A stretch of 64,000 bases of DNA, from the NCBI RefSeq assembly GCF_008704655.1, contig NZ_CP023688.1:7136001-7200000 (forward strand). Reading direction: 5' to 3'. This document shows positions 14,189 to 42,603 of the stretch, in pieces. A model generated the notes under the pieces. The model searched no databases and had not been told where the DNA came from. It saw nothing but the letters and a program-made list of their open reading frames with translations. Positions within the stretch are counted from its first letter, which is position 1; each line of letters starts with the position of its first letter. The position numbers and the translations under genes were made by a program. Source of the DNA: Streptomyces rimosus (GTDB lineage Bacteria > Actinomycetota > Actinomycetes > Streptomycetales > Streptomycetaceae).

Positions 14189-14332
14189 CACCGCCGCCGG
14201 ACGGCCGACGGGCCGCTGTCCCACCCGTGAGGGGAGGGGCGGCGGCCCGTCGTCGTGGGGCGGGCGGTCAGGCCCGGTCGCCATGGGGTGGGCAGTCCGT
14301 CCGCCGCCGTAGGCTCGGCGGGAGGGACCGCC

Positions 14333-14770
14333 CGTATCACCGTCAACGGCTGTGCAGTCCGCCGCCGCGTAGGCCGGGCGGCCGGGGCCGCTCGTACCAG
14401 CGTTACGGCTGAGCTGCCCGCCGCCGCGTGGCCCCGGCGACCTGGGGCTGCCCGTACCACCGTTACGGCTGCGCATCCCGCAGCCGCGTAGGTCCCGGGC
14501 GGCCGGGACCGCCCCGTACCACTGTTACGGCTGTGCTGCCCGCCGCCGCGTGGCCCCGGCGACCTGGGGCTGCCCGTACCACCGTTACGGCTGCGCTGCC
14601 CGGCGCCCGGGACCGCCCGTATCACCGTCAACGGCCGGGCAGCCCGCCGCCGCGTAGGCCCCGGGTGGCCGGAACCGCCCCGTACCACCGTGACGGCCGC
14701 GCAGCCCGCCACCCCTTACCCCCGGCGACCGGAACCGCCCCTACCCCCCTCACCGCCGCCGAACCCGCCG
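14333..14770. repeat. 60-bp imperfect tandem repeat array
   Basis: Units begin with CGTAYCACCGTTACGGCTG-like sequence at 14333, 14393, 14453, 14515, 14575, 14618 (short unit), 14681 and a decayed one near 14741, with period about 60 and a GCCCGCCGCCGCGTAGG-like middle. It fills most of the 587-base gap between convergent uvrA and the PfkB gene. Frames read through it, but they are open only because of GC bias. No gene is called here; it may serve as a structured transcription-ending region or be an expanding minisatellite. Confidence 0.88.
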
Positions 14771-14775
14771 CCCCG

Positions 14776-15723
14776 TCACTCCGGCCCCACCAGCTCCGTC
14801 GCGTACGGCGGCTGTGCGCCGGGGCGGGAGCAGGTCACTGCGGCCGCGCGGGCCGCGAAGCCGAGGATGTCGCGCCAGGCGTCGGGGGAGAGGGCGGCGA
14901 GCGCGCCGGGGGACAGGGCGCCGTGCGCGTCGAGGCGGTGCAGCAGCGCCGCGTTGACCGTGTCGCCCGCGCCGATCGTGTCCGCGACCTCGATCCGCTC
15001 GCCGGGCACCGTGATCTCCGTACCGCCCGGCGTCAGCACGGACAGCCCGTCGCCGCCGCGCGTGAGCACCACCGCCGCCGGACCGGCCGCCAGCCAGTCC
15101 TTGACCGCGGCCGCGACGCCCTGGGGCCCGGCCAGCCACTCCGCGTCCTCCTCCGAGAGCTTCAGCAGCGTGACGTGCGGCAGCCAGGAGCGGAAGCGGG
15201 CCCGGTAGGCGTCCGCGTCCGCGATCAGCCCGGCGCGGATGTTGGGGTCCAGCGCGGTGAAGATCCCCTGCTCCGCCGAGCGGCGCATCAGCGACTCGTA
15301 CGCGCTCGCGCCCGGCTCCAGCACCAGCGAGCAGGTGCCGAACGACACCGCCCGCGTCGCGGCGGGCAGTTCGGCCGGCAGGGTGAACAGCCGGTCGGCG
15401 GTGCCGTCGGCGTAGAAGCCGTAACCCGCCGAGCCGTCCGGACTGATGTCCGCGACCGCCAGGGTGGTCGGCTCGGTGCCGCGCTGGACGAGCGAGATGT
15501 CCACGCCGTCGGCGCGCAGCCCGCGCAGCAGCTCCTCCCCGAAGGTGTCGGTCGACACCCGCGAGCAGAACGCGGCGGGCGAGCCGAGCCGTCCGAGGGC
15601 GAGCGCGGTGTTGTACGGGCCGCCGCCCCGGCGCGGCAGCAACGCGGGCAACGGCCCGTCCCCGGACGGCGGTTGGGAGCTGGGCACGAGGTCGATCAGG
15701 GCCTCGCCGGCGACGACGATCAC
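14776..15723 (-). CDS. PfkB family carbohydrate kinase (fructokinase-like)
   Basis: 315 residues of the ribokinase/PfkB fold. Begins MIVVAGEALIDLVPS; the sugar-binding GGGPYNTALALGRLG and the ATP/anion-hole signature VADTIGAGDTVNAALL (catalytic Asp in GAGD) are intact. The N-terminal GEALIDL and GG-x-x-N-x-A pattern is that of fructokinases and related kinases. It lies 36 bases downstream of the LacI gene on the same strand and probably shares its promoter. Together with the divergent dehydrogenase and sugar porter it would complete a route of uptake, oxidation to a keto-sugar and phosphorylation; fructose from a hexitol is the simplest guess. Confidence 0.92.
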   Translation of the reverse strand: MIVVAGEALIDLVPSSQPPSGDGPLPALLPRRGGGPYNTALALGRLGSPAAFCSRVSTDTFGEELLRGLRADGVDISLVQRGTEPTTLAVADISPDGSAGYGFYADGTADRLFTLPAELPAATRAVSFGTCSLVLEPGASAYESLMRRSAEQGIFTALDPNIRAGLIADADAYRARFRSWLPHVTLLKLSEEDAEWLAGPQGVAAAVKDWLAAGPAAVVLTRGGDGLSVLTPGGTEITVPGERIEVADTIGAGDTVNAALLHRLDAHGALSPGALAALSPDAWRDILGFAARAAAVTCSRPGAQPPYATELVGPE

Positions 15724-28305: not shown

Positions 28306-29366
28306 CCGCCCGTCCCCTGCGGCTGCGCCGGGTCCGCAAGCTGGTCCCGGGCAGCCGCTCCGGCAGGGGCGCCACGCCCAAGGTCGTGGCGCTCGGCGGC
28401 GGCATGGGCCTGTCCGCCTCGCTGGCCGCGCTGCGCCGTATCACCGGCGACCTGACCGCCGTCGTCACGGTCGCCGACGACGGCGGCTCCAGCGGGCGGC
28501 TGCGCGACGAGCTGGGCGTCCTGCCGCCCGGCGACCTGCGCAAGGCGCTGGCCGCGCTGTGCGGGGACGACGACTGGGGCCAGACCTGGTCCCGGGTGAT
28601 CCAGCACCGCTTCACCAGCGAGGGCGAGCTGCACGACCACGCCGTCGGCAACCTCCTCATCGTCGCCCTGTGGGAACAGCTCGGCGACCACGTCCAGGCC
28701 CTGGACCTGGTCGGCAAGCTGCTCGGCGCGCACGGCCGGGTGCTGCCCATGTCCGCCGTACCCCTGGAGCTCCAGGCCCTGGTCAAGGGCCACGACGAGG
28801 CCCGCCCGGACGACATCTCCACCGTCCGCGGCCAGGCCACGGTCGCGCTCACCCGAGGCGAGGTGCAGTCCGTGCACGTCGTCCCCGAGGACCCGCCCGC
28901 GGTGCCCGAGGCCGTCGAGGCGGTCCGCGACGCGGACTGGGTCGTGCTCGGCCCCGGCTCCTGGTTCTCCTCCGTCATCCCGCACCTGCTCGTGCCCGAG
29001 CTGCGCGAGGCACTGGAGGAGACCAAGGCCCGCAAGGTCCTCTCGCTGAACCTGGCACCCCAGCCCGGCGAAACCGATGGCTTTTCCCCGCAGCGTCATT
29101 TGGAGGTTTTGGCCCGACACGCCCCTAAACTCGCCTTCGACGTGGTGCTGGCCGACCGGGCCGCCGTGCCCGACACCGAAAGCCTGACCGTCGCTGCCAA
29201 GCAGCTCGTCGGCAGCGAGGTCGAGCTGGCGGCGGTCGCCGCGCCCGGCAGCCCCTGCGGCACGGCGGAGACCCACAAGGGAGCCGCCCGGCACGACCCG
29301 GAGCTGCTGGCCGCCGCGTACGACCGTATTTTTCGGATGCATGGAAGGATCGGCCCATGGCGATGA
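28302..29366 (+). CDS. yvcK: Gluconeogenesis factor YvcK family protein
   Basis: 354 residues, start overlapping the rapZ stop (ATGA). CofD/YvcK fold: [18 protein letters not shown] at residue ~27, then [18 protein letters not shown] and [12 protein letters not shown], the UDP-sugar-binding segments; NLLIVALWE and [14 protein letters not shown] follow. YvcK/CuvA/GlmR proteins bind UDP-GlcNAc and adjust cell-wall precursor supply on gluconeogenic carbon. The last ten bases overlap whiA. Confidence 0.96.
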
Positions 29367-30346
29367 CGGCAGCGGTGAAGGATGAAATCTCCCGGCTCCC
29401 CGTCACCCGGACCTGCTGCCGGAAGTCGGAGGTCTCGTCGATCCTGCGGTTCGCGGGCGGTCTGCACCTGGTCAGCGGGCGCATCGTGATCGAGGCGGAG
29501 CTGGACACGGGCATCGCCGCCCGGCGGCTGCGCAAGGACATCCTGGAGATCTTCGGCCACTCCTCCGACTTGGTGGTCATGGCCCCCGGCGGCCTGCGGC
29601 GCGGCAGCCGCTACGTCGTACGGGTCGTCGCCGGCGGCGACCAGCTCGCCCGCCAGACCGGCCTGGTCGACGGCCGCGGCCGGCCCATTCGCGGCCTCCC
29701 CCCGCAGGTCGTCTCCGGGGCCACCTGCGACGCCGAGGCCGCGTGGCGCGGAGCCTTCCTCGCGCACGGCTCGCTCACCGAGCCCGGCCGCTCCTCCTCC
29801 CTGGAGGTCACCTGCCCGGGGCCCGAGGCGGCCCTCGCGCTGGTCGGCGCGGCCCGCCGGCTCGGCATCGGCGCCAAGGCCCGCGAGGTGCGCGGCGTGG
29901 ACCGCGTCGTCGTCCGGGACGGTGATGCGATTGGCGCGCTGTTGACGCGCCTGGGGGCCCATGAGTCCGTACTGGCCTGGGAGGAGCGGCGGATGCGCCG
30001 CGAGGTCCGCGCCACGGCCAACCGCCTCGCCAACTTCGACGACGCCAACCTGCGCCGCTCGGCCCGAGCCGCTGTCGCGGCGGGTGCCCGGGTCCAGCGC
30101 GCCCTGGAGATCCTCGGCGAGGAGGTCCCCGAGCACCTGGCCGCGGCCGGCCGCCTGCGCATGGACCACAAGCAGGCGTCCCTCGAAGAACTGGGCGCCC
30201 TCGCCGACCCGCCCCTGACGAAGGACGCGGTCGCCGGCCGCATCCGCCGCCTCCTGGCCATGGCCGACAAGCGCGCCCAGGACCTGGGCATCCCCGGCAC
30301 GGAGTCGAATCTGTCGGAGGAGATGGCGGACGGGATGGTCGGCTGA
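29357..30346 (+). CDS. whiA: Sporulation regulator WhiA
   Basis: 329 residues, ATG overlapping the yvcK end by ten bases. WhiA works with WhiB at promoters to stop aerial growth and start sporulation septation in Streptomyces. The N-terminal half is a degenerate LAGLIDADG homing-endonuclease fold ([19 protein letters not shown]; a second repeat [35 protein letters not shown]), without nuclease residues; the C-terminal helix-turn-helix is in [25 protein letters not shown]. The WhiA start codon lies within yvcK, so basal expression comes from the operon; any separate developmental promoter would sit inside yvcK. Confidence 0.97.
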
Positions 30347-30374
30347 GGTGCCGCGGTAGCGGCGCGTGTCCGGC

Positions 30375-30890
30375 GGGGTTTCGGCGCCCGGTGGTGAGCC
30401 GGTCGCCGTGGCCGACTTGCTCCCCGTACCGGGTTACGCCGGCCTTTGCCGGTGCACGGGGCCGGTCCTCCAGACTCCGTCCTACGGCCCAGCCCCTCCC
30501 GCCGTACGGCGACGATCGGCCGGTGGGGGCAGGCGTCCTCCCGCCCACGTACGTGGCAGTCTGGCGCGTACGGGAGGGTTCGGCACCGTAGGACGGAGTC
30601 TGGAGGGGCCGGGCCCGCGCCACCGCCGTAGCGGGGAGTTTCGACGGCAGGTGGCGGGTCAGCCGCCGTGGCCGACTCGCTGCCCGTATCCGGTGCCGCC
30701 GTCCCGCGCTTGGGTACGGGGCCGGTCCTCCAGACTTCGTCCTACGGCCCAGCCCCTCCCGCCGTACGGCGACGAACGGCCGGTGGGGGCAGACGTCCCC
30801 CCCCACCCACGTACGTGGCAGCCGAACGCGTACGGGAGGGTTCGGGACCGGAGGACGGAGTCTGGAGGGGCCGGGCCCGCGCCCAGTACC
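30375..30890 (+). repeat. 260-bp structured element, tandem dimer (copy A)
   Basis: Two head-to-tail units with an exact 260-base offset (for example CCTCCAGACTCCGTCCTACG at 30467 and its match at 30727). Each unit contains a 21-base inverted repeat (30467-30487 with 30586-30606, perfect; 30727-30747 with 30848-30868, two mismatches), an inner CCTCCCG/CGGGAGG pairing, and the 12-base palindrome CCACGTACGTGG. Reverse-complemented copies with only about nine differences over ~225 bases lie at 41258-41767. No coding potential: frames through it read differently in the two units. It fills the 620-base gap after whiA. I do not recognise the family. Confidence 0.92.
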
Positions 30891-30966
30891 GGACGCCCCG
30901 AGGGGACCATCCCGGGGCCGGAAAACCATGTGCGGCCCACCCCGGCCGCCCCCTAGCCTCCGGCAA

Positions 30967-31863
30967 ATGGACGCATTGCGGATCAGACCGATGGGGGCGG
31001 ACGATCTCGCGTCGGCGGAGCGCGCCTCGGCGCTGACGTTTCTCGACGCGGATCGGCTTGCCCGCAGGGCCCGCGATCCGGAGCCCGAGCTGCGGCCCGC
31101 CGCTGCCGCCCGGCGCTGGATCGACCGGATGCGCTACTACCTGGACGTCGACCCGGGCGGCTGCTGGGTCGCGGTGGACGCCGGTACGGGGACGGGCGCG
31201 GACCAGGTGGTGGGCTTCGCCGTCTCCCAGAACCGCGACGCCCTCTGGTACCTCGCCACCTACGGCGTTCTGCCCGGCCACCAGGGCCGCGGCATCGGCA
31301 GGCGCCTGCTGGACGCCGTCCTCGCGCACGCCGACGGACGCCCGGGCATCTTCTCCTCCAGCGTCCACCCCGGCGCCACCCGCCGCTACCGGCTCGCCGG
31401 CTTCTCGCTGCACCCGCAGATGCAGATGGTGGGGACCGTCGACCGGTCCGCCCTGCCCGCGGTGGACGGGCTCCGGGACGGCGGCCCGGACGACTTCGCG
31501 TGGATGGACCGGCTGGACCGCGACCTGCGGGGCGCCGGGCACGGCCCCGACCACGGCTGTCTGCTCGCCGCCCACCGGCTGGTCGTCACCCGCGACCGGT
31601 CCCGGCCGGGGTACGTGTACGTCGATGACCGGGGGAACGCCGTGCTGCTGGCCGCCGAGCGGGTGGACACCGCGCAGCGGCTGCTGTGGGAAGCGCTGGC
31701 CGCGTCGTACGGGGACACCCTCGTCAACTGCATCACCGTCCCCAACGAATGGGCGATCGACGTCGGTCTCGCCGCCGGGCTCGCCATCAGCCAGGAGGGG
31801 TACATCGCCGTTCGCGGGATGCCTGTCCCGGCCCCGTACCTGGCGGCCGGGCACTTCCTGTAG
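30967..31863 (+). CDS. GNAT family N-acetyltransferase
   Basis: 298 residues from the ATG at 30967. The N-terminal GNAT domain has the acetyl-CoA site in LATYGVLPGHQGRGIGRRLLDAVLAH (Q/RxxGxG/A as QGRGIG) and the final strands in PGIFSSSVHPGATRRYRLAGF. A second, C-terminal half (~residues 155-298: DDFAWMDRLDRDLRGAGHG; PGYVYVDDRGNAVLLAAER; EWAIDVGLAAGL) resembles a degenerate second GNAT lobe, so the protein is probably a tandem GNAT. Substrate unknown. Transcribed alone between the 260-bp element and a terminator that begins at its stop codon. Confidence 0.9.
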   Translation: MDALRIRPMGADDLASAERASALTFLDADRLARRARDPEPELRPAAAARRWIDRMRYYLDVDPGGCWVAVDAGTGTGADQVVGFAVSQNRDALWYLATYGVLPGHQGRGIGRRLLDAVLAHADGRPGIFSSSVHPGATRRYRLAGFSLHPQMQMVGTVDRSALPAVDGLRDGGPDDFAWMDRLDRDLRGAGHGPDHGCLLAAHRLVVTRDRSRPGYVYVDDRGNAVLLAAERVDTAQRLLWEALAASYGDTLVNCITVPNEWAIDVGLAAGLAISQEGYIAVRGMPVPAPYLAAGHFL

Positions 31864-31887
31864 GCCGTACGGGCACCCCGTACGGCC
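31863..31887 (+). terminator. Terminator after the GNAT gene
   Basis: GGCCGTACGGG (31863-31873) and CCCGTACGGCC (31877-31887) form a perfect 11-base stem with a 3-base loop, followed shortly by GCTTTT. Confidence 0.8.
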
Positions 31888-31910
31888 ACCGCTTTTGGCC
31901 ACGGCCTGTA

Positions 31911-31939
31911 TTGACATGATCATGCAGCGTGACCAGTCT
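31911..31939 (+). promoter_or_regulatory. Candidate carboxypeptidase promoter
   Basis: A perfect -35 box TTGACA (31911-31916) with a weak CAGTCT (31934-31939) at 17 bases. It lies 44 bases before the start codon of the M14 gene; the -10 match is poor. Confidence 0.4.
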
Positions 31940-31982
31940 GGCGAGCGCTCATTCACGAGATGGACGACGGTGAGGGGGGCTC

Positions 31983-34940
31983 ATGAGACGCAAGACGAGA
32001 TCCTTACTGGCGGCAGCGGCGCTGCTGCTGGGCGGGATGGCGGCGGTGCCGGCCGCGCAGGCGCAGGCGCGGGACGGCGGGGGAGGGGACCGGGGCGCCA
32101 TCGGGACGTGGAGCGGCCAGGTCAGCGCGGCGCAGGTGCCGCTGCTGCTGAAGGCCGGTGTGGACGGCCACGAGCTGGGCGCGCAGGTGCCGAAGGCCGG
32201 TAAGGGGCAGGTCGAGGTGCAGCTGTCGGCCGCGCAGGCGGCGGGGTTGCGCAAACAAGGGGTCCAGCTGACCCGCAAAATCGTTTCCCCGGAGACGCAG
32301 CGCAAGCTCAAGGCCCAGGGAGACCGGGTCTTCCGGCCCTACATGGGCGTCAACGGCCTGATGAAGGAGATGATCGACACCGCCCGGTTCAACCGGAAGC
32401 TGGCGAAGGTCGTCAGCATCGGCAAGACCGTCCGGGGCCACGACATCATGGCCCTGAAGCTCACCAAGAACGCCGACACCACCGAGGACGGCGCCAAGCC
32501 CGCGGTGCTGTACCTGTCCAACCAGCACGCCCGGGAGTGGATCACTCCCGAGATGACCCGCCGGCTGATGCAGTACTACCTGGCCGGGTACGGCAAGGAC
32601 CCGCGGCTGACGAAGATCCTCGACACCACCGAGCTGTGGTTCGTGCTCTCCGCCAACCCCGACGGCTACGACTTCACCTTCGAGAGCCCGCAGAACCGCA
32701 TGTGGCGCAAGAACCTGCGGGACAATAACGGCGACGGCAAGATCACGCCGGGCGACGGCGTCGACCTCAACCGCAACTTCGCCTACAAGTGGGGCTACGA
32801 CAACGAGGGTTCGTCCCCCAACCCGTCCAGCGAGACCTACCGCGGCCCGTCCGCCGCCTCCGAGCCGGAGACCAAGGCGCTGGACGCCTTCGAGAAGCGC
32901 ATCGGTTTCCGTTACGCCATCAACTACCATTCCGCCGCCGAGCTGATCCTCTACGGCGTCGGCTGGCAGGTCGCCACGCCCACCCCCGACGACATCCTGT
33001 ACCGGGCCCTGGCCGGCACCCCGGAGAAGTCCGCGATCCCCGGCTACCGCCCGCAGGTCTCCTCGGAGCTGTACACCACCAACGGCGAAGCCGACGGCCA
33101 CGCGTCCAACGTCAACGGCATCCCCATGTTCACCCCGGAGATGTCCACCTGCCAGACCGCGTCGAACGCCGACCCCAATGACGAATGGAACGCCGCCGAC
33201 TGCCAGTCGGTCTTCACCTTCCCCGACTCCGAGAAGCTGATCCAGGCGGAGTTCGAGAAGAACATCCCCTTCGCGCTCTCCGTCGCCGAGAGCGCCCGGC
33301 GCCCGGACCGGCCCGTCTCGTCGGTGGGCCTGAAGGCGCCCGACTTCACGCCGCACGCCTTCACCACCTCGTACGCGCGTGGGGAGGAGCAGCAGGTCGC
33401 GGTCACCGCGCGCAAGTCCGTACGTGACAAGGAGCTCAACTACCGCGTCAACGGCGGGTCCCGGCACACCGAGGAACTCGAAGCCTGGAAGGGCGGCGAG
33501 ACCTACGGCGGCGAGGACAATCTGCACTTCGACCAGTACCGGGCCGCCGTCGAAGGGGCCGACCCCGGCGACAAGGTCGAGGTGTGGTTCACCGGCCGTA
33601 CCCGCGACGGCAAGGCCACCCGAAGCGAACCCTTCACCTACACCGTCGCCGAGCGGCCCCGCGCCGACACCCTGGTCATCGCCGAGGAGGGCGGCACCGC
33701 CCCTGCGCGGCACATCGCCGCGTACACCAAGGCCCTGGCCGCCAACGGCCACCGCGCGGCCGTCTGGGACGTCGCCCGGCAGGGCACCCCGGACGCGCTC
33801 GGCGTCCTGAGCCACTTCGAGAAGGTGGTCTGGTACACCGGCGCGGGACGGCCCGGCGGCGCCACCCAGCTGGCCGTACGCGACTACCTCAACGAGGGCG
33901 GCAAGCTGCTCACCGCCGGTGAGCAGGCCGGCGGCAGCGCCGTGGTCGGCCGGGCGGTCAGCGACGACTTCGCCCAGTACTACCTGGGCGCCGGCAGCCG
34001 GATCTCCCTGAAGTCGCCGCCCTCCTTCAAGGGCGACGGCAAGCTGGCCGGCACGGAGGTCAAGCTGGGCGACGCGCCCGGCAACCCGCTGGACGCCGCC
34101 GGCACCCACTCGGTCATCTCCGACGAGCTGCCGCCCGCGACGTTCCCGCAGTTCGCGAGCGCCGCGGCCGGTACCTACCCGGGCGTACGGTCGCCGTTCC
34201 AGCCGTACGAGGGCGACTGGTTCGCCGCCGCACAGCACCGCGACAACTCCTGGATGCGGCTGGCCCGGACCGTGGACCTGACAGGTGTGGCCGCGAGTGC
34301 CCGGCCCGCCTTCCAGTTCATGCTCAGCCACGACACCGAGGAGGGCTACGACAACGCCGTCATCGAGGCGCACACCGTCGGCAAGGACGACTGGACCACC
34401 CTGCGTGACGCGAACGGCGGCACCGGCACCGACGTACCCGCCGACTGCGGCCAGGGCTACTACCTGACCACCCACCCCTTCCTCCAGCACTATCTGACCC
34501 GGACCGGCACCCGGTGCGGCAACACCGGCACGACCGGTGCGTGGAACCGCTTCACCGGCAGCTCGAACGGCTGGCGGCCGGTGTCCGTGGACCTGTCCGC
34601 CTACGCCGGGCAGCTCGTCGAGCTGGCGATCTCCTACGTCACCGACCCCGGCACCGGCGGCCGCGGCGTCTTCGTGGACAACACCAAGGTCACCACCGGC
34701 GCCGGCGGCGAGCCCCTGGAGGGCTTCGAGACCTCCCTCGCGCCCTGGACCGTGCCCGGGCCGCCCGCCGGCAGCCCGGCCTCCTCGGGCGACTGGACCC
34801 GCTCCAAGGAGCTGTTCCGTACGGCCGGCGCGATCACCACGCGGAACACCGTCCTGCTGGGCTTCGGCCTGGAACACGTACAGACCGCCGCGCAACGGGC
34901 CGAACTGACCGGTGCGGCGCTCGACGCGCTGGACGACTGA
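31983..34940 (+). CDS. Secreted M14 zinc carboxypeptidase with C-terminal MAM/InhA-like region
   Basis: 985 residues. Signal peptide: MRRKTRSLLAAAALLLGG, cleavage near AQAQA. A propeptide-like region (~40-110) precedes the M14 domain (~120-440): zinc ligands in SNQHAREWITPEM (HxxE) and INYHSAAEL (His), substrate-binding VDLNRNFAYKWG, and the catalytic Glu region in GIPMFTPEMSTC. The central part (~470-750) has beta-rich and Rossmann-like segments (TLVIAEEGGTAPARHIAAY). The last ~230 residues resemble the immune-inhibitor-A type MAM/jelly-roll region (FQFMLSHDTEEGYDNAVIEA; VSVDLSAYAGQLVELAISYV). Together they indicate a large extracellular metallocarboxypeptidase for nutrient or developmental proteolysis. 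ATG preceded by GTGAGGGGGGCTC. Confidence 0.94.
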   Translation: MRRKTRSLLAAAALLLGGMAAVPAAQAQARDGGGGDRGAIGTWSGQVSAAQVPLLLKAGVDGHELGAQVPKAGKGQVEVQLSAAQAAGLRKQGVQLTRKIVSPETQRKLKAQGDRVFRPYMGVNGLMKEMIDTARFNRKLAKVVSIGKTVRGHDIMALKLTKNADTTEDGAKPAVLYLSNQHAREWITPEMTRRLMQYYLAGYGKDPRLTKILDTTELWFVLSANPDGYDFTFESPQNRMWRKNLRDNNGDGKITPGDGVDLNRNFAYKWGYDNEGSSPNPSSETYRGPSAASEPETKALDAFEKRIGFRYAINYHSAAELILYGVGWQVATPTPDDILYRALAGTPEKSAIPGYRPQVSSELYTTNGEADGHASNVNGIPMFTPEMSTCQTASNADPNDEWNAADCQSVFTFPDSEKLIQAEFEKNIPFALSVAESARRPDRPVSSVGLKAPDFTPHAFTTSYARGEEQQVAVTARKSVRDKELNYRVNGGSRHTEELEAWKGGETYGGEDNLHFDQYRAAVEGADPGDKVEVWFTGRTRDGKATRSEPFTYTVAERPRADTLVIAEEGGTAPARHIAAYTKALAANGHRAAVWDVARQGTPDALGVLSHFEKVVWYTGAGRPGGATQLAVRDYLNEGGKLLTAGEQAGGSAVVGRAVSDDFAQYYLGAGSRISLKSPPSFKGDGKLAGTEVKLGDAPGNPLDAAGTHSVISDELPPATFPQFASAAAGTYPGVRSPFQPYEGDWFAAAQHRDNSWMRLARTVDLTGVAASARPAFQFMLSHDTEEGYDNAVIEAHTVGKDDWTTLRDANGGTGTDVPADCGQGYYLTTHPFLQHYLTRTGTRCGNTGTTGAWNRFTGSSNGWRPVSVDLSAYAGQLVELAISYVTDPGTGGRGVFVDNTKVTTGAGGEPLEGFETSLAPWTVPGPPAGSPASSGDWTRSKELFRTAGAITTRNTVLLGFGLEHVQTAAQRAELTGAALDALDD

Positions 34941-36116
<1,176 letters not shown>

Positions 36117-36230
36117 CATCCGCCTGATCCAGGCCAGGGCACGTAGCTGTGCGGAAGGGGCTCGTAGGGCGCACCGAAGCGCCGTACGGGCCCCGTCCCA
36201 TGACCGACCTACGCAACGGAGTCACTTCGC

Positions 36231-37442
36231 ATGAAGACGATCGACGATCTCGCCCAGGAAGGGCTGTCCGGCAAGCGGGTCTTCGTCCGCGCCGACCTGA
36301 ACGTGCCGCTGGACGGCACCACCATCACCGACGACGGCCGCATCCGCGCCGTCCAGCCGACGATCGCCAAGCTGGCCCAGCTCGGCGCCAAGGTGATCGT
36401 CGCCTCCCACCTGGGCCGCCCCAAGGGCGCCCCGGACCCGGCCTTCTCGTTGCGCCCCGCCGCCGAGCGGCTCGGTGAACTGGTCGGCCGCGAGGTCGCC
36501 TTCGCCACCGACACCGTCGGCGAGTCCGCCCGCTCGGTGGTCGCCGGGCTGGGCGAGGGCGAGGTCGCAGTTCTGGAGAACCTGCGCTTCAACCCGGGCG
36601 AGACCAGCAAGGACGACGCCGAGCGCGGCGCCTTCGCGGACCAGCTCGCGGAGCTGGCGGACGTGTACGTCGGCGACGGCTTCGGCGCCGTGCACCGCAA
36701 GCACGCCTCCGTCTACGACCTGCCGGCCCGCCTGCCGCACGCCGCCGGCGATCTGATCGCCACCGAGGTCACCGTCCTGAAGAAGCTCACCGAGGACGTC
36801 AAGCGCCCGTACGTGGTCGTGCTCGGCGGCGCCAAGGTCTCCGACAAGCTCGCCGTCATCGACGAGCTGCTCGGCAAGGCCGACCGGCTGCTGATCGGCG
36901 GCGGCATGGCGTACACCTTCCTCAAGGCCAAGGGCTACGAGGTCGGCATCTCCCTCCTCCAGGAGGACCAGATCCCGGCCGTCACCGAGTACATGGAGCG
37001 CGCCGAGAAGAACGGCGTCGAGCTGGTCCTGCCGGTCGACATCCTGGCCTCGGCGGACTTCCCCGACCTGAAGACGAAGGCCCCGGCCGACTTCGTCACG
37101 GTCGACGCCGACCAGATCCCCTCCGACAAGGAGGGCCTGGACATCGGCCCGAAGACCCGCGAGCTGTTCGCCTCGAAGATCGCCGACGCGGAGACCGTCT
37201 TCTGGAACGGTCCCGTGGGCGTCGCCGAGCACCCCGACTACGCGGGCGGCACCACCGCCATCGCGCGGGCCCTGCTGAACTGCGACGGCTTCACCGTCGT
37301 CGGCGGTGGCGACTCGGCCGCCGCCGTGCGCTCGCTCGGCTTCGACGAGAATGCTTTCGGCCACATTTCGACCGGCGGCGGCGCCAGCCTCGAATACCTC
37401 GAAGGCAAGACGCTCCCCGGCCTCGCCGCTCTGGAGGACTGA
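36231..37442 (+). CDS. pgk: Phosphoglycerate kinase
   Basis: 403 residues, normal length. Hallmarks in order: VFVRADLNVPLDG (substrate site), SHLGRPKGAPDP, ENLRFNPGETSKD, GDGFGAVHRKHAS, YVVVLGGAKVSDK (nucleotide domain), FWNGPVGVAE and the C-terminal VVGGGDSAAAVRSLGF / STGGGASLEYLEG. It transfers phosphate from 1,3-bisphosphoglycerate to ADP. Second gene of the gap run; tpiA follows after six bases, so the two are surely co-transcribed. Confidence 0.98.
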   Translation: MKTIDDLAQEGLSGKRVFVRADLNVPLDGTTITDDGRIRAVQPTIAKLAQLGAKVIVASHLGRPKGAPDPAFSLRPAAERLGELVGREVAFATDTVGESARSVVAGLGEGEVAVLENLRFNPGETSKDDAERGAFADQLAELADVYVGDGFGAVHRKHASVYDLPARLPHAAGDLIATEVTVLKKLTEDVKRPYVVVLGGAKVSDKLAVIDELLGKADRLLIGGGMAYTFLKAKGYEVGISLLQEDQIPAVTEYMERAEKNGVELVLPVDILASADFPDLKTKAPADFVTVDADQIPSDKEGLDIGPKTRELFASKIADAETVFWNGPVGVAEHPDYAGGTTAIARALLNCDGFTVVGGGDSAAAVRSLGFDENAFGHISTGGGASLEYLEGKTLPGLAALED

Positions 37443-37448
37443 AGAACC

Positions 37449-38225
37449 GTGACTGACCGTACCCCGCTGATGGCGGGCAACTGGAAGATGAACCTCAACC
37501 ACCTCGAGGCCATCGCGCACGTCCAGAAGCTCGCCTTCGCACTCGCCGACAAGGACTACGAGGCCACCGAGGTCGCGGTCCTGGCCCCCTTCACCGACCT
37601 GCGCTCGGTGCAGACGCTGGTCGACGGCGACAAGCTCAAGATCAAGTACGGCGCCCAGGACATCTCGGCGCACGAGTCCGGCGCGTACACCGGCGAGATC
37701 TCCGGCGGCATGCTCGCCAAGCTCAAGTGCAGCTACGTGGCCGTCGGCCACAGCGAGCGCCGCCAGTACCACGGCGAGAACGAAGAGATCTGCAACGCCA
37801 AGGTCAAGGCGGCCTTCGCGAACGGCCTCACCCCGATCCTGTGCGTCGGCGAGGGCCTGGACGTCCGCAAGGCCGGCAACCAGGTCGCGCACACCCTCGC
37901 CCAGGTCGACGGCGGCCTCGAGGACGTCCCGGCCGAGCAGGCCGAGACCATCGTCATCGCCTACGAGCCCGTGTGGGCCATCGGCACCGGCGAGGTCGCC
38001 ACGCCCGAGGACGCGCAGGAGGTCTGCGGGGCGATCCGCGGCCGCCTCGCGGAGCTGTACAGCCAGGAGCTGGCCGACAAGGTCCGCATCCAGTACGGCG
38101 GCTCGGTCAAGTCCGGCAATGTCGCCGCGATCATGGCGCAGCCGGACGTGGACGGCGCCCTGGTCGGCGGTGCCGCGCTCGACGTGGACGAGTTCGTCAA
38201 GATCGTCCGCTTCCGCGACCAGTAG
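37449..38225 (+). CDS. tpiA: Triosephosphate isomerase
   Basis: 258 residues from the GTG at 37449. TIM-barrel motifs: [13 protein letters not shown] (Lys), [15 protein letters not shown] (catalytic His), [18 protein letters not shown] (catalytic Glu and loop 6), [11 protein letters not shown] (phosphate loop). It interconverts DHAP and GAP. Start six bases after the pgk stop. A hairpin follows its own stop, though secG lies only 133 bases on. Confidence 0.98.
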
Positions 38226-38233
38226 CAGCTATG

Positions 38234-38254
38234 ACGACGGGCCCGGCCCGTCGT
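38234..38254 (+). terminator. Hairpin after tpiA
   Basis: ACGACGGGC (38234-38242) and GCCCGTCGT (38246-38254) pair perfectly around a 3-base loop, nine bases after the tpiA stop. It may be partial, since secG follows. Confidence 0.55.
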
Positions 38255-38358
38255 ACCCTGTCGGGGCCGGGTCCGGCGTCATGTGCGCCCCCCGGCCCCG
38301 TACCATTCGATCTTCTTGGGTACGTCCCGTCCGCCAGTCCTAGAGAGTTGGTCAAGCC

Positions 38359-38595
38359 GTGGTCATCGGGTTCTCGGTAGCCCTCATCGTCTTCAGCCTG
38401 CTGCTGATGATGCTGGTGCTCATGCACAAGGGGAAGGGCGGCGGCCTGTCCGACATGTTCGGCGGCGGCATGCAGTCCTCGGTCGGCGGCTCCTCCGTCG
38501 CGGAGCGGAACCTGGACCGCATCACCATCGTCATCGCCCTGCTCTGGTTCGCGTGCATCGTCGTGCTGGGCGTCCTGATGAAGCTGGACAGCTGA
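38359..38595 (+). CDS. secG: Preprotein translocase subunit SecG
   Basis: 78 residues from a GTG. Two membrane helices (VIGFSVALIVFSLLLMMLVLM and ITIVIALLWFACIVVLGVLM) joined by a Gly-rich loop with the family's HKGKGGGLSDMFGG and SSVAERNLDR. SecG is the non-essential third subunit of the SecYEG channel. The position after tpiA is a conserved bacterial arrangement. Confidence 0.97.
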   Translation: MVIGFSVALIVFSLLLMMLVLMHKGKGGGLSDMFGGGMQSSVGGSSVAERNLDRITIVIALLWFACIVVLGVLMKLDS

Positions 38596-38659
38596 CACGG
38601 TGTCGGGGACGCGGCCTATCATGAGGGCGGCGTCCTCGGTGGGGGTGTAACTCCTGTCA

Positions 38660-38688
38660 CTGGACGCGCGTTGGGCCTTACGTAGACT
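38660..38688 (+). promoter_or_regulatory. Candidate promoter of the RbpA-family gene
   Basis: CTGGAC (38660-38665), 17-base spacer, TAGACT (38683-38688), a good housekeeping-type match, ~65 bases before the GTG start and separate from secG. Confidence 0.5.
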
Positions 38689-38753
38689 GGGGCGCTCCGC
38701 AGCGCGACTGCTGTTCGATGCTTCGCAGCACCATTACGCAGGGAGTTACAACC

Positions 38754-39089
38754 GTGGCAAGTGGCAACGCGATCCGAGGGAGTCGGGTCGGGGCGGGGCC
38801 GATGGGGGAGGCGGAGCGGGGCGAGTCCGCGCCGCGCATCCGCATCTCCTTCTGGTGCTCGAACGGGCACGAGACTCAGCCCAGCTTCGCCGGTGACGCG
38901 CAGATTCCGGACACCTGGGACTGCCCGCGCTGCGGCTTCCCGGCAGGCAAGGACCGGGACAACCCGCCGGACCCGCCGCGCACCGAACCGTACAAGACGC
39001 ACCTCGCGTACGTCCGCGAGCGCCGCAGCGACGCCGACGGCGAGGCGATCCTCGCGGAGGCGCTCGCCAAGCTCCGCGGGGAGATCTGA
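38754..39089 (+). CDS. RbpA-family RNA polymerase-binding protein
   Basis: 111 residues from the GTG at 38754 (ribosome site GGGAG). RbpA-type layout: N-terminal ASGNAIRGSRVGAGP, a core domain with zinc-type ligands (FWCSNGHE and DCPRCGFP), and a C-terminal helix (KTHLAYVRERRSDADGEAIL) aligning with the THWDMLxERR sigma-interaction region of RbpA. RbpA binds the group-1 sigma and RNA polymerase and stabilises open complexes. The C-terminal helix differs from canonical RbpA (HLAYVRERR in place of HWDMLLERR), and the tail is short, so it may be a paralogue rather than the main RbpA. Monocistronic, with its own promoter and terminator. Confidence 0.88.
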   Translation: MASGNAIRGSRVGAGPMGEAERGESAPRIRISFWCSNGHETQPSFAGDAQIPDTWDCPRCGFPAGKDRDNPPDPPRTEPYKTHLAYVRERRSDADGEAILAEALAKLRGEI

Positions 39090-39109
39090 CGGACCAGCAC
39101 ACGACGGCC

Positions 39110-39148
39110 GGCCCGGCCGGAGGGAACCACCACCCCTCCGGCCGGGCC
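39110..39148 (+). terminator. Strong hairpin terminator after the RbpA-family gene
   Basis: GGCCCGGCCGGAGGG (39110-39124) and CCCTCCGGCCGGGCC (39134-39148): perfect 15-base stem, 9-base loop. Confidence 0.8.
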
Positions 39149-39314
39149 GTTCGCGTCTCCGGCCCGCGGCCGGGTGGGGCAGGGGCCGGTCGCGTACCGC
39201 TCCGAGGTGCCGAAACGGTTATCCGGGGCAGCCGACAGCGGGGGGACACCTCATCCCGCATCCTGATCAATTAGGTTGGGAGACGGCGGGGCCGGTACGA
39301 GAAGAAGAAGGCTG

Positions 39315-40973
39315 ATGTCCGAGATGAACGCAGAAGGCCGCAGGCTCGACCAGACGGCCGAGTGGACCGCGCTGGGCAAGCACCGGGAGCAGCTGGGGGA
39401 GGTGCGGCTGCGCGACCTGTTCGACCAGGACCCGGACCGCGCCGGACGCTACACCCTCCAGGTCGGCGACCTGCACCTGGACTACTCCAAGCACCTGGTC
39501 ACCGACGAGACGCTGCGCCTGCTGCGCGAGCTGGCCGCGGCCCGTGGCGTGGCCGAGCTGCGGGACGCGATGTTCCGCGGCGAGAAGATCAACGTCACCG
39601 AGAACCGGGCCGTGCTGCACACCGCGCTGCGCGTCCCCGAGTCCGCCTCGATCGAGGTCGACGGCGAGAACGTCGTCCCCGCCGTACACGCCGTCCTGCG
39701 CAAGATGCAGGTCTTCACCGACCGGGTGCGCTCGGGTGAGTGGAAGGGCCACACCGGCAAGCGGATCAAGACGGTCGTCAACATCGGCATCGGCGGCTCC
39801 GACCTGGGCCCGGCGATGGCGTACGAGGCGCTGCGCGCCTACACCCACCGCGACATGCAGTTCCGCTTCGTCTCCAACGTGGACGGCGCCGACCTGCACG
39901 AGGCCGTCCGCGACCTCGACCCCGCGGAAACGCTCTTCATCGTCGCCTCGAAGACCTTCACCACCATCGAGACGATCACCAACGCCACCTCCGCCCGCAA
40001 CTGGCTGCTGACCGGCCTGCGGGCCGGCGAGGAAGCGGTGGCCAAGCACTTCGTCGCCCTGTCGACCAACGCCGAGAAGGTCGCGGACTTCGGCATCGAC
40101 ACCGACAACATGTTCGAGTTCTGGGACTGGGTCGGCGGCCGCTACTCCTTCGACTCCGCGATCGGCCTGTCCCTCATGCTGGCGATCGGCCCCGAGGCGT
40201 TCCGCGAGATGCTGGCCGGCTTCCACCTCGTCGACGAGCACTTCCGCTGCGCGCCCGCCGAGGAGAACGTCCCGCTCCTGCTCGGCCTGCTCGGCATCTG
40301 GTACGGCAACTTCTGGGACGCGCAGTCGCACGCGGTGCTCCCGTACAGCCATTACCTGTCCAAGTTCACGGCGTACCTCCAGCAGCTGGACATGGAGTCC
40401 AACGGCAAGTCCGTCACCCGCGACGGCAACCCGGTCCACTGGCAGACCGGCCCCGTCGTCTGGGGCACGCCCGGCACCAACGGCCAGCACGCGTACTACC
40501 AGCTCCTCCACCAGGGCACCAAGCTCATCCCGGCCGACCTCATCGGCTTCGCCAACCCGGTCGAGGACCTCCACCCCGGCCTGGTCGCCCAGCACGACCT
40601 GCTGATGGCCAACCTCTTCGCCCAGGGCCAGGCGCTGGCCTTCGGCAAGACCCCCGACGAGGTACGGGCCGAGGGCGTCCCCGAGGAACTGGTCCCGCAC
40701 AAGACCTTCCAGGGCAACCGCCCCACCACCACCATCCTGGCCAAGGAACTCACCCCCTCCGTACTGGGCCAGCTGATCGCCCTCTACGAGCACAAGGTCT
40801 TCGTCCAGGGCGCCGTCTGGAACATCGACTCCTTCGACCAGTGGGGCGTCGAACTCGGCAAGGTCCTGGCGAAGCGAGTCGAGCCCGCGCTCACGGAGGG
40901 CACGGACGTCGAGGGGCTGGACGCCTCGACGCGGTCCCTGGTGGCCACGTACCGCGAGATGCGGGGCCGCTGA
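39315..40973 (+). CDS. pgi: Glucose-6-phosphate isomerase
   Basis: 552 residues from the ATG at 39315 (AAGAAGG ribosome site; the frame is open 39 bases further without one). Signatures: [37 protein letters not shown], the sugar-phosphate loop and [13 protein letters not shown] with the catalytic Glu, and the C-terminal [21 protein letters not shown]. It interconverts glucose-6-P and fructose-6-P, linking the glycolytic genes on its left with the pentose phosphate operon on its right. Its stop overlaps the start of a small coupled gene. Confidence 0.98.
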
Positions 40974-41236
40974 TGGCGGCGGAGGAGGGGGTCCTGGCCG
41001 AGTTCCTGGACCTCCTCACCCCGGAGAACCGGCAGTGGTTCGAGTCGCGCCCGGAGGCCGAGCAGCGCGAGGTGGCGACCCGTCACCTGGAAGCCGTACA
41101 GGGCGACAAGGAACACGCCCTGGGCGCCTACGACACGCATGACACTGACGTGTCGGGTGTGGCGGTGGGGGATCTCCAGGATCCCGCGCACGTCGCCAAC
41201 GCGATGGTCCGGCAGGAGCGCGAGCGCAGGCCGTGA
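40973..41236 (+). CDS. Small hypothetical protein coupled to pgi
   Basis: 87 residues; its ATG shares a base with the pgi stop (TGATG), so it is translationally coupled. The sequence is acidic and helical (EEGVLAEFLDLLTPENRQWF; AEQREVATRHLEAVQGDKEH), with no membrane segment. Third positions are strongly GC-rich as in real genes here. I do not recognise a family. Coupling to pgi suggests a role tied to sugar-phosphate metabolism, but that is positional inference only. Confidence 0.7.
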   Translation: MAAEEGVLAEFLDLLTPENRQWFESRPEAEQREVATRHLEAVQGDKEHALGAYDTHDTDVSGVAVGDLQDPAHVANAMVRQERERRP

Positions 41237-41257
41237 CCGGCTGAGGCCCGGTCGCGG

Positions 41258-41767
41258 TGGGCGCGGGCTCGGCCCCTCCGGACTCCGTCCTGCGGTCCCG
41301 AACCCTCCCGTACGCGTCGGACTGCCACGTACGTGGGTGGGGGGACGTCTGCCCCCACCGGCCGTTCGTCGCCGTACGGCGGGAGGGGGCGGGCCGTAGG
41401 ACGGAGTCTGGAGGACCGGTCCCGTGCACGGGTGCGGGACGGCGGCACCGGATACGGGCAGCGAGTCGGCCACGGCGGCTGGCCCGCCGCCGGCCGTCGA
41501 AACTCCCCGGTACGGCGGTGGCGCGGGCCCGGCCCCTCCGGACTCCGTCCTACGGTGCCGAACCCTCCCGTACGCGTTCGGCTGCCACGTACGTGGGTGG
41601 GGGGACGTCTGCCCCCACCGGCCGTTCGTCGCCGTACGGCGGGAGGGGGCGGGCCGTAGGACGGAGTCTGGAGGACCGGTCCCGTACCCAAGTGCGGGAC
41701 GGCGGCACCGGATACGGGCAGCGAGTCGGCCACGGCGGCTGGCCCACCACCGGCCGACGAAACCCCG
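41258..41767 (-). repeat. 260-bp structured element, tandem dimer (copy B, inverted)
   Basis: Two units, again offset by exactly 260 bases (GACTCCGTCC at 41281 and 41541), reverse-complementary to copy A at 30375-30890. The same CCACGTACGTGG palindrome and 21-base-type inverted repeat (CTCCGGACTCCGTCCTACGG ... CCGTAGGACGGAGTCTGGAG) are present. It fills the gap between the pgi-coupled gene (+) and pgl (-) and reads in the direction of pgl, just as copy A reads in the direction of whiA. No coding potential. A terminator-type hairpin separates it from pgl. Confidence 0.92.
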
Positions 41768-41778
41768 TCGGACGACGA

Positions 41779-41810
41779 ACGGCCCCGCTCCCACAAGGGA
41801 ACGGGGCCGT
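41779..41810 (-). terminator. Terminator at the end of the pgl operon
   Basis: ACGGCCCCGCTCCC (41779-41792) pairs with GGGAACGGGGCCGT (41797-41810) with one mismatch and a 4-base loop, ten bases beyond the pgl stop. Possibly bidirectional. Confidence 0.78.
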
Positions 41811-41820
41811 CGTACGGACG

Positions 41821-42603
41821 TCAGGCCGAAGCCGGCGGGTACAGACCCCGCGGCAACTGCGACGCGGCCGCCTCGTCCAGGAGCCACAGCGTGCGGCTGC
41901 GGCCGTAGGCGCCCGCTGCCGGGGCCTGGATCTCTCCGGCGCCGGAGAGGGCCATCGCCGCGGCCTTCGCCTTGTCCTCGCCCGCCGCGAGCAGCCAGAC
42001 CTCGCGGGCCGCGCGGATGGCGGGCAGGGTCAGGGAGAGGCGGGTGGGCGGGGGCTTGGGGGCGCCGTGGACGGCGACGACCGTGCGCTCCGTCTCGCGT
42101 ACGGCGGGCAGCTCCGGGAAGAGCGACGCCACGTGCGTGTCCGGGCCGACGCCCAGGAGCAGGACGTCGAAGGACGGCACGGGGCCGTGGTCCTCGGGAC
42201 CCGCCGCCGCGGACAGTTCGATCGCGTACGCCTCGGCCGCGGCGTCCGCGTCATTGCCGTACGGGCCGTTCGACGGGGCCATCACATGCACCCGCGCCGG
42301 GTCCACCGGAACGCTGTCCAGCAGGGCCTCCCGGGCCTGCGTGTGATTGCGCTCCGGGTCGCCGTCCGGCAGGAACCGCTCGTCGCCCCACCACAGGTCC
42401 AGCCGGCCCCAGTCCACCGCGTCCCGGGCGGGCGCCTCGGCGAGGGCCGCGAGCAGCCCGTTGCCGTTGCGGCCGCCCGTCAGGACGACGGAGGCCGAGC
42501 CGCGGGCCGCCTGCGCGTCCACGATCTTCGTGATCAGCCGGGCCGCCGCGGCCTTGGCCATCAGCTCCTTGTCCCGGTGGACGACGACCTGCGGCGCGCT
42601 CAC
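41821..42603 (-). CDS. pgl: 6-phosphogluconolactonase
   Basis: 260 residues of the NagB/SugarP-isomerase-like DevB family: VVLTGGRNGNGLLAAL (GGR phosphate loop), LDLWWGDERFLPDGDPERN (WGDER signature) and FDVLLLGVGPDTHVASLFP (the GxGxDGH-like site, with DTH here). It hydrolyses 6-phosphogluconolactone in the oxidative pentose phosphate pathway. Last gene of tkt-tal-zwf-opcA-pgl; its start overlaps the opcA end by four bases. Confidence 0.96.
   Translation of the reverse strand: MSAPQVVVHRDKELMAKAAAARLITKIVDAQAARGSASVVLTGGRNGNGLLAALAEAPARDAVDWGRLDLWWGDERFLPDGDPERNHTQAREALLDSVPVDPARVHVMAPSNGPYGNDADAAAEAYAIELSAAAGPEDHGPVPSFDVLLLGVGPDTHVASLFPELPAVRETERTVVAVHGAPKPPPTRLSLTLPAIRAAREVWLLAAGEDKAKAAAMALSGAGEIQAPAAGAYGRSRTLWLLDEAAASQLPRGLYPPASA

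What the first reader, a model, noticed from the sequence alone, without database searches (positions are those of the whole stretch)
30375..41767. 260-bp structured element present as inverted tandem dimers around central metabolism genes
At 30375-30890 and 41258-41767 the same ~260-base non-coding unit occurs twice head to tail with exactly 260-base offset, in opposite orientations, with only about nine differences over ~225 bases between loci. Each unit has a 21-base inverted repeat, nested stems and a CCACGTACGTGG palindrome. Both dimers sit directly downstream of a gene in the same reading direction (whiA; pgl). High identity and dimeric state suggest mobility or gene conversion, and the arrangement could mediate inversion of the ~11 kb between. 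I know of no named family that matches.
Basis: partly seen in the sequence, partly recalled or inferred. Interest (0 to 1): 0.75.

Follow-up and report, generated by a model that had tools for sequence, protein, structure and literature searches.

The report
Self-shuffling palindromic repeats between Streptomyces genes
The two paired repeats are local tandem arrays of an unnamed family of long palindromic DNA repeats that sits at fixed places after genes in one group of Streptomyces; within each genome the copies appear to keep exchanging short stretches of sequence, so the places are old while the sequences are young.

Summary
The repeats are real: two head-to-tail units after whiA (A) and two between the pgi operon and pgl (B), in opposite orientation. 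A third site (C) lies 67 kb away. Five rimosus-group genomes carry A and C, four B, two a fourth site D, with 1-5 whole units per site. The 11 kb between A and B is inverted in none of the five. The ~150-bp core is homologous to an unnamed dispersed palindrome of the S. lydicus/nigrescens group (up to dozens of arm matches per genome), enriched between convergent genes. Sites are old, sequences young: at 13 orthologous sites of S. nigrescens and S. endophytica (flanks 96.7-99.5% identical) the true ortholog is never the closest copy, the core is flipped at 3, and linkage among copies of one genome is gone within about 20 bp. In the window's group AU tests reject one clade for A units and for B units. 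No Y1 transposase, plasmid, phage or Rfam match; no covariation or strand bias favouring an RNA role. Best reading: REP/ERIC-like palindromes that persist where harmless and are rewritten from one another in short tracts, probably by template switching or break repair at hairpins (inferred).

The parts
30368..30883 (-). array A: two tandem units (about 30368-30623 and 30634-30883), downstream of whiA
30463..30610 (-). core palindrome of unit A1
   Evidence: core HMM match
30723..30872 (-). core palindrome of unit A2
   Evidence: core HMM match
41258..41779 (+). array B: two tandem 260-bp units between the convergent pgi operon and pgl
41272..41418 (+). core palindrome of unit B1
   Evidence: core HMM match
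41532..41678 (+). core palindrome of unit B2
   Evidence: core HMM match
41679..41779 (+). linker and extension that bring the unit to about 260 bp; by eye the extension is absent from the site C units here and from 11 of 14 whole G036/G048 units; a trace is left in the array-less B gap of G048
41780..41809 (.). short GC-rich hairpin beside pgl; a comparable hairpin is seen by eye in pgl gaps of relatives without the array, so B is not the only terminator candidate
   Evidence: sequence; the T-tail terminator scan did not report it
29357..30346 (+). whiA, gene before array A
   Evidence: Pfam
30967..31863 (+). GNAT acetyltransferase gene after array A
   Evidence: Pfam; DNA search at E <= 1e-40 finds it in 14 of 392 genus genomes, own included
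39315..40973 (+). pgi, with a small gene at 40973-41236, before array B
   Evidence: Pfam; the small gene has no Pfam match
41821..42603 (-). pgl (Pfam Glucosamine_iso, which covers 6-phosphogluconolactonase), convergent with pgi
   Evidence: Pfam

Best explanation
The units are non-coding, long imperfect palindromes of an unnamed intergenic repeat family of one Streptomyces lineage. Shown: most sites examined are shared between species; copies lie preferentially after genes and between convergent genes; tandem copy number changes at a site; in the dispersed relatives, variants are shuffled among the copies of a genome in short tracts and the core can flip in place. Inferred: the hairpins cause replication template switches or breaks (for example by SbcCD) that are resolved from another copy or the other arm; this rewrites copies, expands or contracts tandem arrays and now and then seeds or deletes a site. 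The 3'-end location most likely reflects selection against insertion near promoters, with at most a mild effect on overlapping 3' transcripts.
For: Family: arm motif with up to 1 mismatch in 15 of 392 genus genomes, 10 of them with 4-93 matches; the reversed control pattern has 8 matches in all 392; dispersed copies in named S. lydicus/nigrescens-group genomes. Shared sites: A and C in 5 of 5 rimosus-group genomes, B in 4 of 5; 17 of 26 S. nigrescens and 20 of 26 S. endophytica motif placements have a flank match to an element-bearing locus of another species among those held. Concerted evolution in the rimosus group: mean identity 0.894 for A-B pairs of one genome (30 pairs), 0.841 for same-site pairs of different genomes (178 pairs); AU test rejects one clade for A (p 7e-58) and for B (p 5e-4); 9 changes of genome label on the tree, 14 of site label. 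Rewriting in the dispersed family: true ortholog is best match in 0 of 13, mean relative rank 0.47 (random 0.52), flanks 96.7-99.5%, same gap confirmed from both sides for 10 and from one side for 3; core flipped at 3 of 13; r2 0.35 and 0.33 at up to 5 bp, 0.06 at 11-20 bp, unlinked level 0.04. Location: 30 convergent, 28 tandem, 6 divergent of 64 gaps against 12, 85, 62 of 159 other gaps of at least 150 bp (convergent p 1e-10) or 52, 227, 80 of all 359 (p 3e-8). SbcD in 8 of 8 genomes.
Against: Recurrent mutation at a few tolerant positions could mimic part of the linkage decay. A coarser Mantel test that still held L173 gave correlated distances for 3 of 6 segment pairs. In the rimosus group the signal is weaker: only G436 is one side of a branch, most branches are open or unstarred (3 of 34 starred); B units of G000 and G036 are closer to each other (0.908) than A to B within G036 (0.870); linkage falls more slowly. 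Orthologs are slightly closer than non-orthologs in 6 of 8 deeper species pairs, farther in 2. The 64 gaps include orthologous gaps of sister species, so that p is too small. Variable stem pairs do not covary (lowest p 0.054 of 14 pairs), so arms are not kept matched. The machinery is inferred; SbcD also passes its cut-off in 8 of 14 control genomes. Site D needs some means of movement or two losses.
Confidence: 0.6

Rival explanations
1. Non-autonomous mobile element (MITE) moved in trans by a transposase, with tandem insertion into its own copies.
For: Up to dozens of arm matches per genome; site D filled in G376 and G436 and without the unit in G000, G036 and G048.
Against: Most sites tested are shared between species; no target duplication could be defined because flanks of full and empty sites are too different; Y1 transposase in 0 of 5 genomes, other transposase families not tested.
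Confidence: 0.2
2. Functional 3'-end RNA structure: bidirectional terminator, insulator or RNase III substrate for overlapping convergent transcripts (cutoRNAs, passages of PMC3765725).
For: Strong folding on both strands; enrichment between convergent genes; A and C persist in five genomes.
Against: No covariation; no clear strand bias in the outer stem, G-U 28 against A-C 19; a separate hairpin stands beside pgl with or without the array (by eye); B is missing in G048 and from 19 readable gaps of other relatives; no promoter-like or T-tailed terminator match inside the arrays.
Confidence: 0.15
3. Recombination site pair that inverts the 11 kb between A and B.
For: Inverted arms of 435-511 bp, about 89-90% identical; cores of dispersed relatives flip in place at 3 of 13 sites.
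Against: Gene order is the same, not inverted, in 5 of 5 genomes; G048 lacks array B; the family also occurs singly at many sites.
Confidence: 0.05

Closest known systems
REP/BIME repeats of enterobacteria and pseudomonads
   Same: Intergenic palindromes, many per genome, found after genes and in clusters (recalled); evolution by gene conversion was asked in the title of Higgins et al. 1988, seen in the reference list of PMC2267715
   Different: Unit of 197-273 bp instead of about 40; no Y1 (RAYT-type) transposase in 5 genomes searched; no sequence comparison made
ERIC and YPAL repeats
   Same: Intergenic elements of roughly 70-170 bp; ERIC is predicted to fold into one long stem-loop (passages of PMC2267715)
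   Different: Other lineage; here tandem arrays and shuffling among copies at orthologous sites; no sequence comparison made
Quasi-palindromes altered by template switching
   Same: Short-tract copying between imperfect inverted repeats (abstract starts of PMC7202029, PMC8604942, PMC8794818)
   Different: Those cases are described between the arms of one inverted repeat; here exchange appears to run between dispersed copies
Concerted evolution of multicopy bacterial loci such as rRNA operons (recalled)
   Same: Copies in a genome resemble each other
   Different: Here copies stay diverse and are reshuffled over some 5-20 bases instead of being homogenised over long tracts

Membership tests
REP/BIME | associated Y1 (RAYT-type) transposase in the genome | tested here: not met
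   PF01797 in 0 of 5 genomes; found in 5 of 14 control genomes
REP/BIME | short (about 20-40 bp) palindromic unit (size recalled) | tested here: not met
   unit 197-273 bp, core about 150 bp
REP/BIME | intergenic, biased to gene 3' ends | tested here: met
   58 of 64 gaps are convergent or tandem, 30 convergent
ERIC/YPAL | sequence homology to ERIC or YPAL | not tested
   no comparison made
ERIC/YPAL | one long stem-loop | tested here: met
   long imperfect stem predicted on both strands of one unit
MITE | target-site duplication at empty/filled pairs | tested here: inconclusive
   empty flanks too diverged at B and D
MITE | cognate transposase with matching ends | not tested
   only the Y1 family was searched
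Rfam structured RNA | match to a curated family | tested here: not met
   0 gathering matches in the window; two sub-threshold matches near B, E 0.37 and 0.87
Rfam structured RNA | compensatory changes in stems | tested here: not met
   none of 14 pairs tested has p below 0.05
Invertible segment (11 kb) | both orientations found among relatives | tested here: not met
   5 of 5 same orientation
3' convergent transcripts (cutoRNA) | transcripts cross the array | not testable with these tools
   no RNA data

The most novel reading that the evidence does not exclude
A self-rewriting repeat family: dispersed palindromes at fixed sites that exchange tracts of roughly 5-20 bp with other copies in the same clonal genome, and flip in place, so fast that orthologous copies lose their identity while flanks diverge by only about 0.5-3%. 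This would imply an active, short-tract, non-allelic copying process (hairpin-templated switching or a dedicated enzyme) that the literature searches made here did not turn up for bacterial intergenic repeats.
Probability: 0.3. Interest if true: 0.8.

Novelty: new variant of a known kind. Interest (0 to 1): 0.55.

Why it matters
If right, these repeats are a natural read-out of non-allelic short-tract exchange in a bacterial chromosome, at a pace far above that of neighbouring DNA. They would let one measure how palindromes are processed in Streptomyces, whose chromosomes are known for instability (recalled). They also warn against using such intergenic repeats as vertical markers.

Tried and rejected
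RNA family: Rfam gave nothing. Plasmid and phage origin: a unit has no match in those collections, and the arm pattern has 0 in viral contigs. RAYT-driven REP: no Y1 transposase in the 5 genomes searched. Inversion in G376: array and GNAT positions first looked inverted to me; whiA and pgl placement showed only a reversed contig. RNA orientation from G-U pairs: the fold-optimised count (121 G-U, 18 A-C) favours the folded strand; the orientation-neutral outer stem gives 28 to 19, so I dropped it. Covariation: not seen. Insertion-site duplications could not be read. No covariance model and no structure prediction was made.

Rows dropped and limits: 3 of 40 units were truncated and left out of the 37-core alignment. 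In one search, of 91 motif placements 12 at locus edges, 2 inside a called ORF, 11 more in rimosus-group loci and 2 double counts were removed, leaving 64 gaps; genes were called with my own codon-usage script trained on nine window genes. In one search, L173 and L182 were left out because they carry an extra insert. Of 14 nigrescens-endophytica pairs listed, L159-L170 lies too near a locus end, so 13 were used. In one search, where an endophytica locus holds two placements, the one closest to the nigrescens copy was taken, which favours the ortholog. Copies were found by an exact 25-bp arm pattern, so copies with a changed arm are missing. One search scored few first-look candidates per genome (2 in its column) and missed sites C and D of G376, found later. 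In one search one matching flank sufficed, and the L173 matches there (75-85%) look paralogous. One search listed weak matches (E 2e-5 to 1e-3, 22-82 bp) in further genomes, which I did not count as carriers.
Full report
OBSERVATION. The local alignment of reverse-complemented A with B covers 511 columns at 89.6% identity, score 349, against a best score of 14 in 200 single-base shuffles. Differences between units are more than reported: 14 of 246 columns for the closest A-B pair, 20-32 of 244-251 for the other A-B pairs. The unit tested (41518-41777) folds better than all 200 shuffles on either strand and as DNA. The genome has one further site (C) 67 kb away, with one whole and one truncated unit, between a plus-strand and a minus-strand gene that look like an amidohydrolase and a symporter (names from reading the sequence and recall, no family search).

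RELATIVES WITH THE SAME ARRAYS. Of 392 genus genomes sampled, 4 match a unit at E <= 1e-12: G000 (own), G036, G048 and G376. A pattern scan of named genomes added S. monomycini (G436); equal contig lengths tie G048 to S. rimosus NRRL WC-3904 and G376 to Streptomyces sp. CB02923. Whole-length cores per site are: G000 A2 B2 C1; G036 A4 B2 C1; G048 A5 C2; G376 A4 B3 C2 D1; G436 A3 B2 C1 D2. G048 has only a 100-bp gap at B, with what looks by eye like the end of the extended unit, which suggests a deletion. Site D holds the unit in G376 and G436 and not in G000, G036 and G048. The segment between A and B keeps its orientation in all five. Of 26 loci of relatives outside this group, 19 gave a readable pgi-pgl gap (69-640 bp) and none of these shows the unit by eye.

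A DISPERSED FAMILY. Exact 20-base arm matches in 14 chosen genomes range from 2 to 58. With up to one mismatch a 21-base version occurs in 15 of 392 genus genomes: ten with 4-93 matches, one with 3 and four with a single one-mismatch or exact match, near the chance level shown by 8 matches of the reversed control. It has no exact match in viral contigs, and a unit finds no plasmid or phage match. Window unit and one S. lydicus copy align at 70% over 170 bp, E 1e-14. In S. nigrescens and S. endophytica the core is flanked by about 60-bp repeats, and in many copies another hairpin stands in place of the 5' arm (by eye; 97).

LOCATION. Among 64 element-bearing gaps outside the rimosus group, 30 are convergent, 28 tandem and 6 divergent. 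Other gaps of at least 150 bp in the same loci are 12, 85 and 62 (convergent p 1e-10, divergent p 5e-6); against all 359 other gaps p is 3e-8 and 0.02. Gaps of sister species are partly orthologous, so these p values are too small. B, C and D are also between convergent genes; A is not. A preference of stem-loops for convergent gaps is reported for bacteria generally (passages of PMC1590033), and Streptomyces convergent genes often have overlapping 3' transcripts (passages of PMC3765725).

OLD SITES, YOUNG SEQUENCES. In the rimosus group, A and B units of one genome are on average more alike (0.894, 30 pairs) than units at one site in different genomes (0.841, 178 pairs); G036 is an exception, its B units being closer to those of G000 (0.908) than to its own A units (0.870). 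Forcing all 18 A units, or all 9 B units, into one clade is rejected (p 7e-58 and 5e-4); the tree needs 9 changes of genome label and 14 of site label, but most of its branches are weak (3 of 34 starred) and only G436 is one side of a branch. In the dispersed family, 17 of 26 S. nigrescens and 20 of 26 S. endophytica motif placements have a flank match to an element-bearing locus of another species among those held. For 13 pairs of these two species the same gap was confirmed, from both sides for 10 and from one for 3. Their flanks are 96.7-99.5% identical, their elements 82-91%. The true ortholog is the best match in 0 of 13, mean relative rank 0.47 where random is 0.52. Parts taken separately agree: 0.837 and 0.898 for orthologs, 0.814 and 0.890 for non-orthologs. 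At 3 of 13 sites the asymmetric core is flipped relative to the flanks, and at one the hairpin module of one species is replaced by the plain arm in the other. Between deeper species pairs orthologs are slightly closer than non-orthologs in 6 of 8 pairs and farther in 2 (14 comparisons).

SHORT TRACTS. Among 24 S. nigrescens copies r2 between informative sites is 0.35 at up to 5 bp, 0.12 at 6-10, 0.06 at 11-20, then 0.03-0.07 with an unlinked level of 0.04. For 23 S. endophytica copies it is 0.33, 0.12, 0.06, then 0.04-0.05. All four allele combinations occur in 263 of 335 and 234 of 281 site pairs within 60 bp. A coarser Mantel test that still held L173 found correlated distances in 3 of 6 segment pairs. 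In the rimosus group 291 of 435 site pairs show all four, with a slower decay in the two sub-groups. Hot-spot mutation may contribute; that the same short block alleles recur at different sites (by eye) argues for copying.

MECHANISM. No Y1 transposase in 5 genomes; SbcD in 8 of 8, and over its cut-off in 8 of 14 control genomes. That palindromes provoke breaks handled by SbcCD and RecA in E. coli, and that imperfect inverted repeats are altered by template switching, I take from titles and abstract starts (PMC3315005, PMC4245961, PMC7202029, PMC8604942, PMC8794818) and recall. Hairpin-provoked copying is therefore an inference. An RNA role is not excluded but is unsupported: no covariation among variable pairs, G-U 28 against A-C 19 in the outer stem.

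IN PRINT. Searches for Streptomyces palindromic, REP-like, MITE or intergenic repeats, for repeats of S. rimosus, for concerted evolution of palindromes and for the motif letters listed no description of this family that I recognised from titles and abstract starts. Find calls on papers: PMC2267715 (92 stem-loop families) has no 'Streptomyces' in its main text; PMC9045324 (S. rimosus reference genome) has no 'palindrom' or 'intergenic'; passages of PMC4681348 mention palindromic 3' decay intermediates in S. coelicolor and E. coli. Only the open library was searched, and supplementary files were not.

Recounting changed the control count from 7 to 8; two searches were added and found the in-place flips.

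Noticed in passing
window 14320-14780: Another GC-rich tandem array of about 60-bp units, after a lysine-rich gene; found only in the own genome of 6 searched.
   Followed up: partly
L094 (G051) gap between pgi and pgl: An unrelated long hairpin containing CGTCCGGCGTTTGAGGAC sits in the orthologous gap, so convergent gaps of other Streptomyces may hold other repeat families.
   Followed up: no
L064 near 13222 (G376): The GNAT gene after array A lacks its first codons at the array edge and matches in two pieces, so it looks broken there.
   Followed up: no
L045:2540-2655 (G036 site C): A 39-bp unit repeated three times directly before the palindromic unit.
   Followed up: no
flanks of dispersed copies, loci L109-L187: About 60-bp repeats flank the core in S. 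nigrescens and S. endophytica, with variable number (by eye).
   Followed up: partly
L127/L151, L187/L137, L176/L140: The asymmetric core lies in opposite orientation at the same gap in S. nigrescens and S. endophytica, an inversion within the element.
   Followed up: partly
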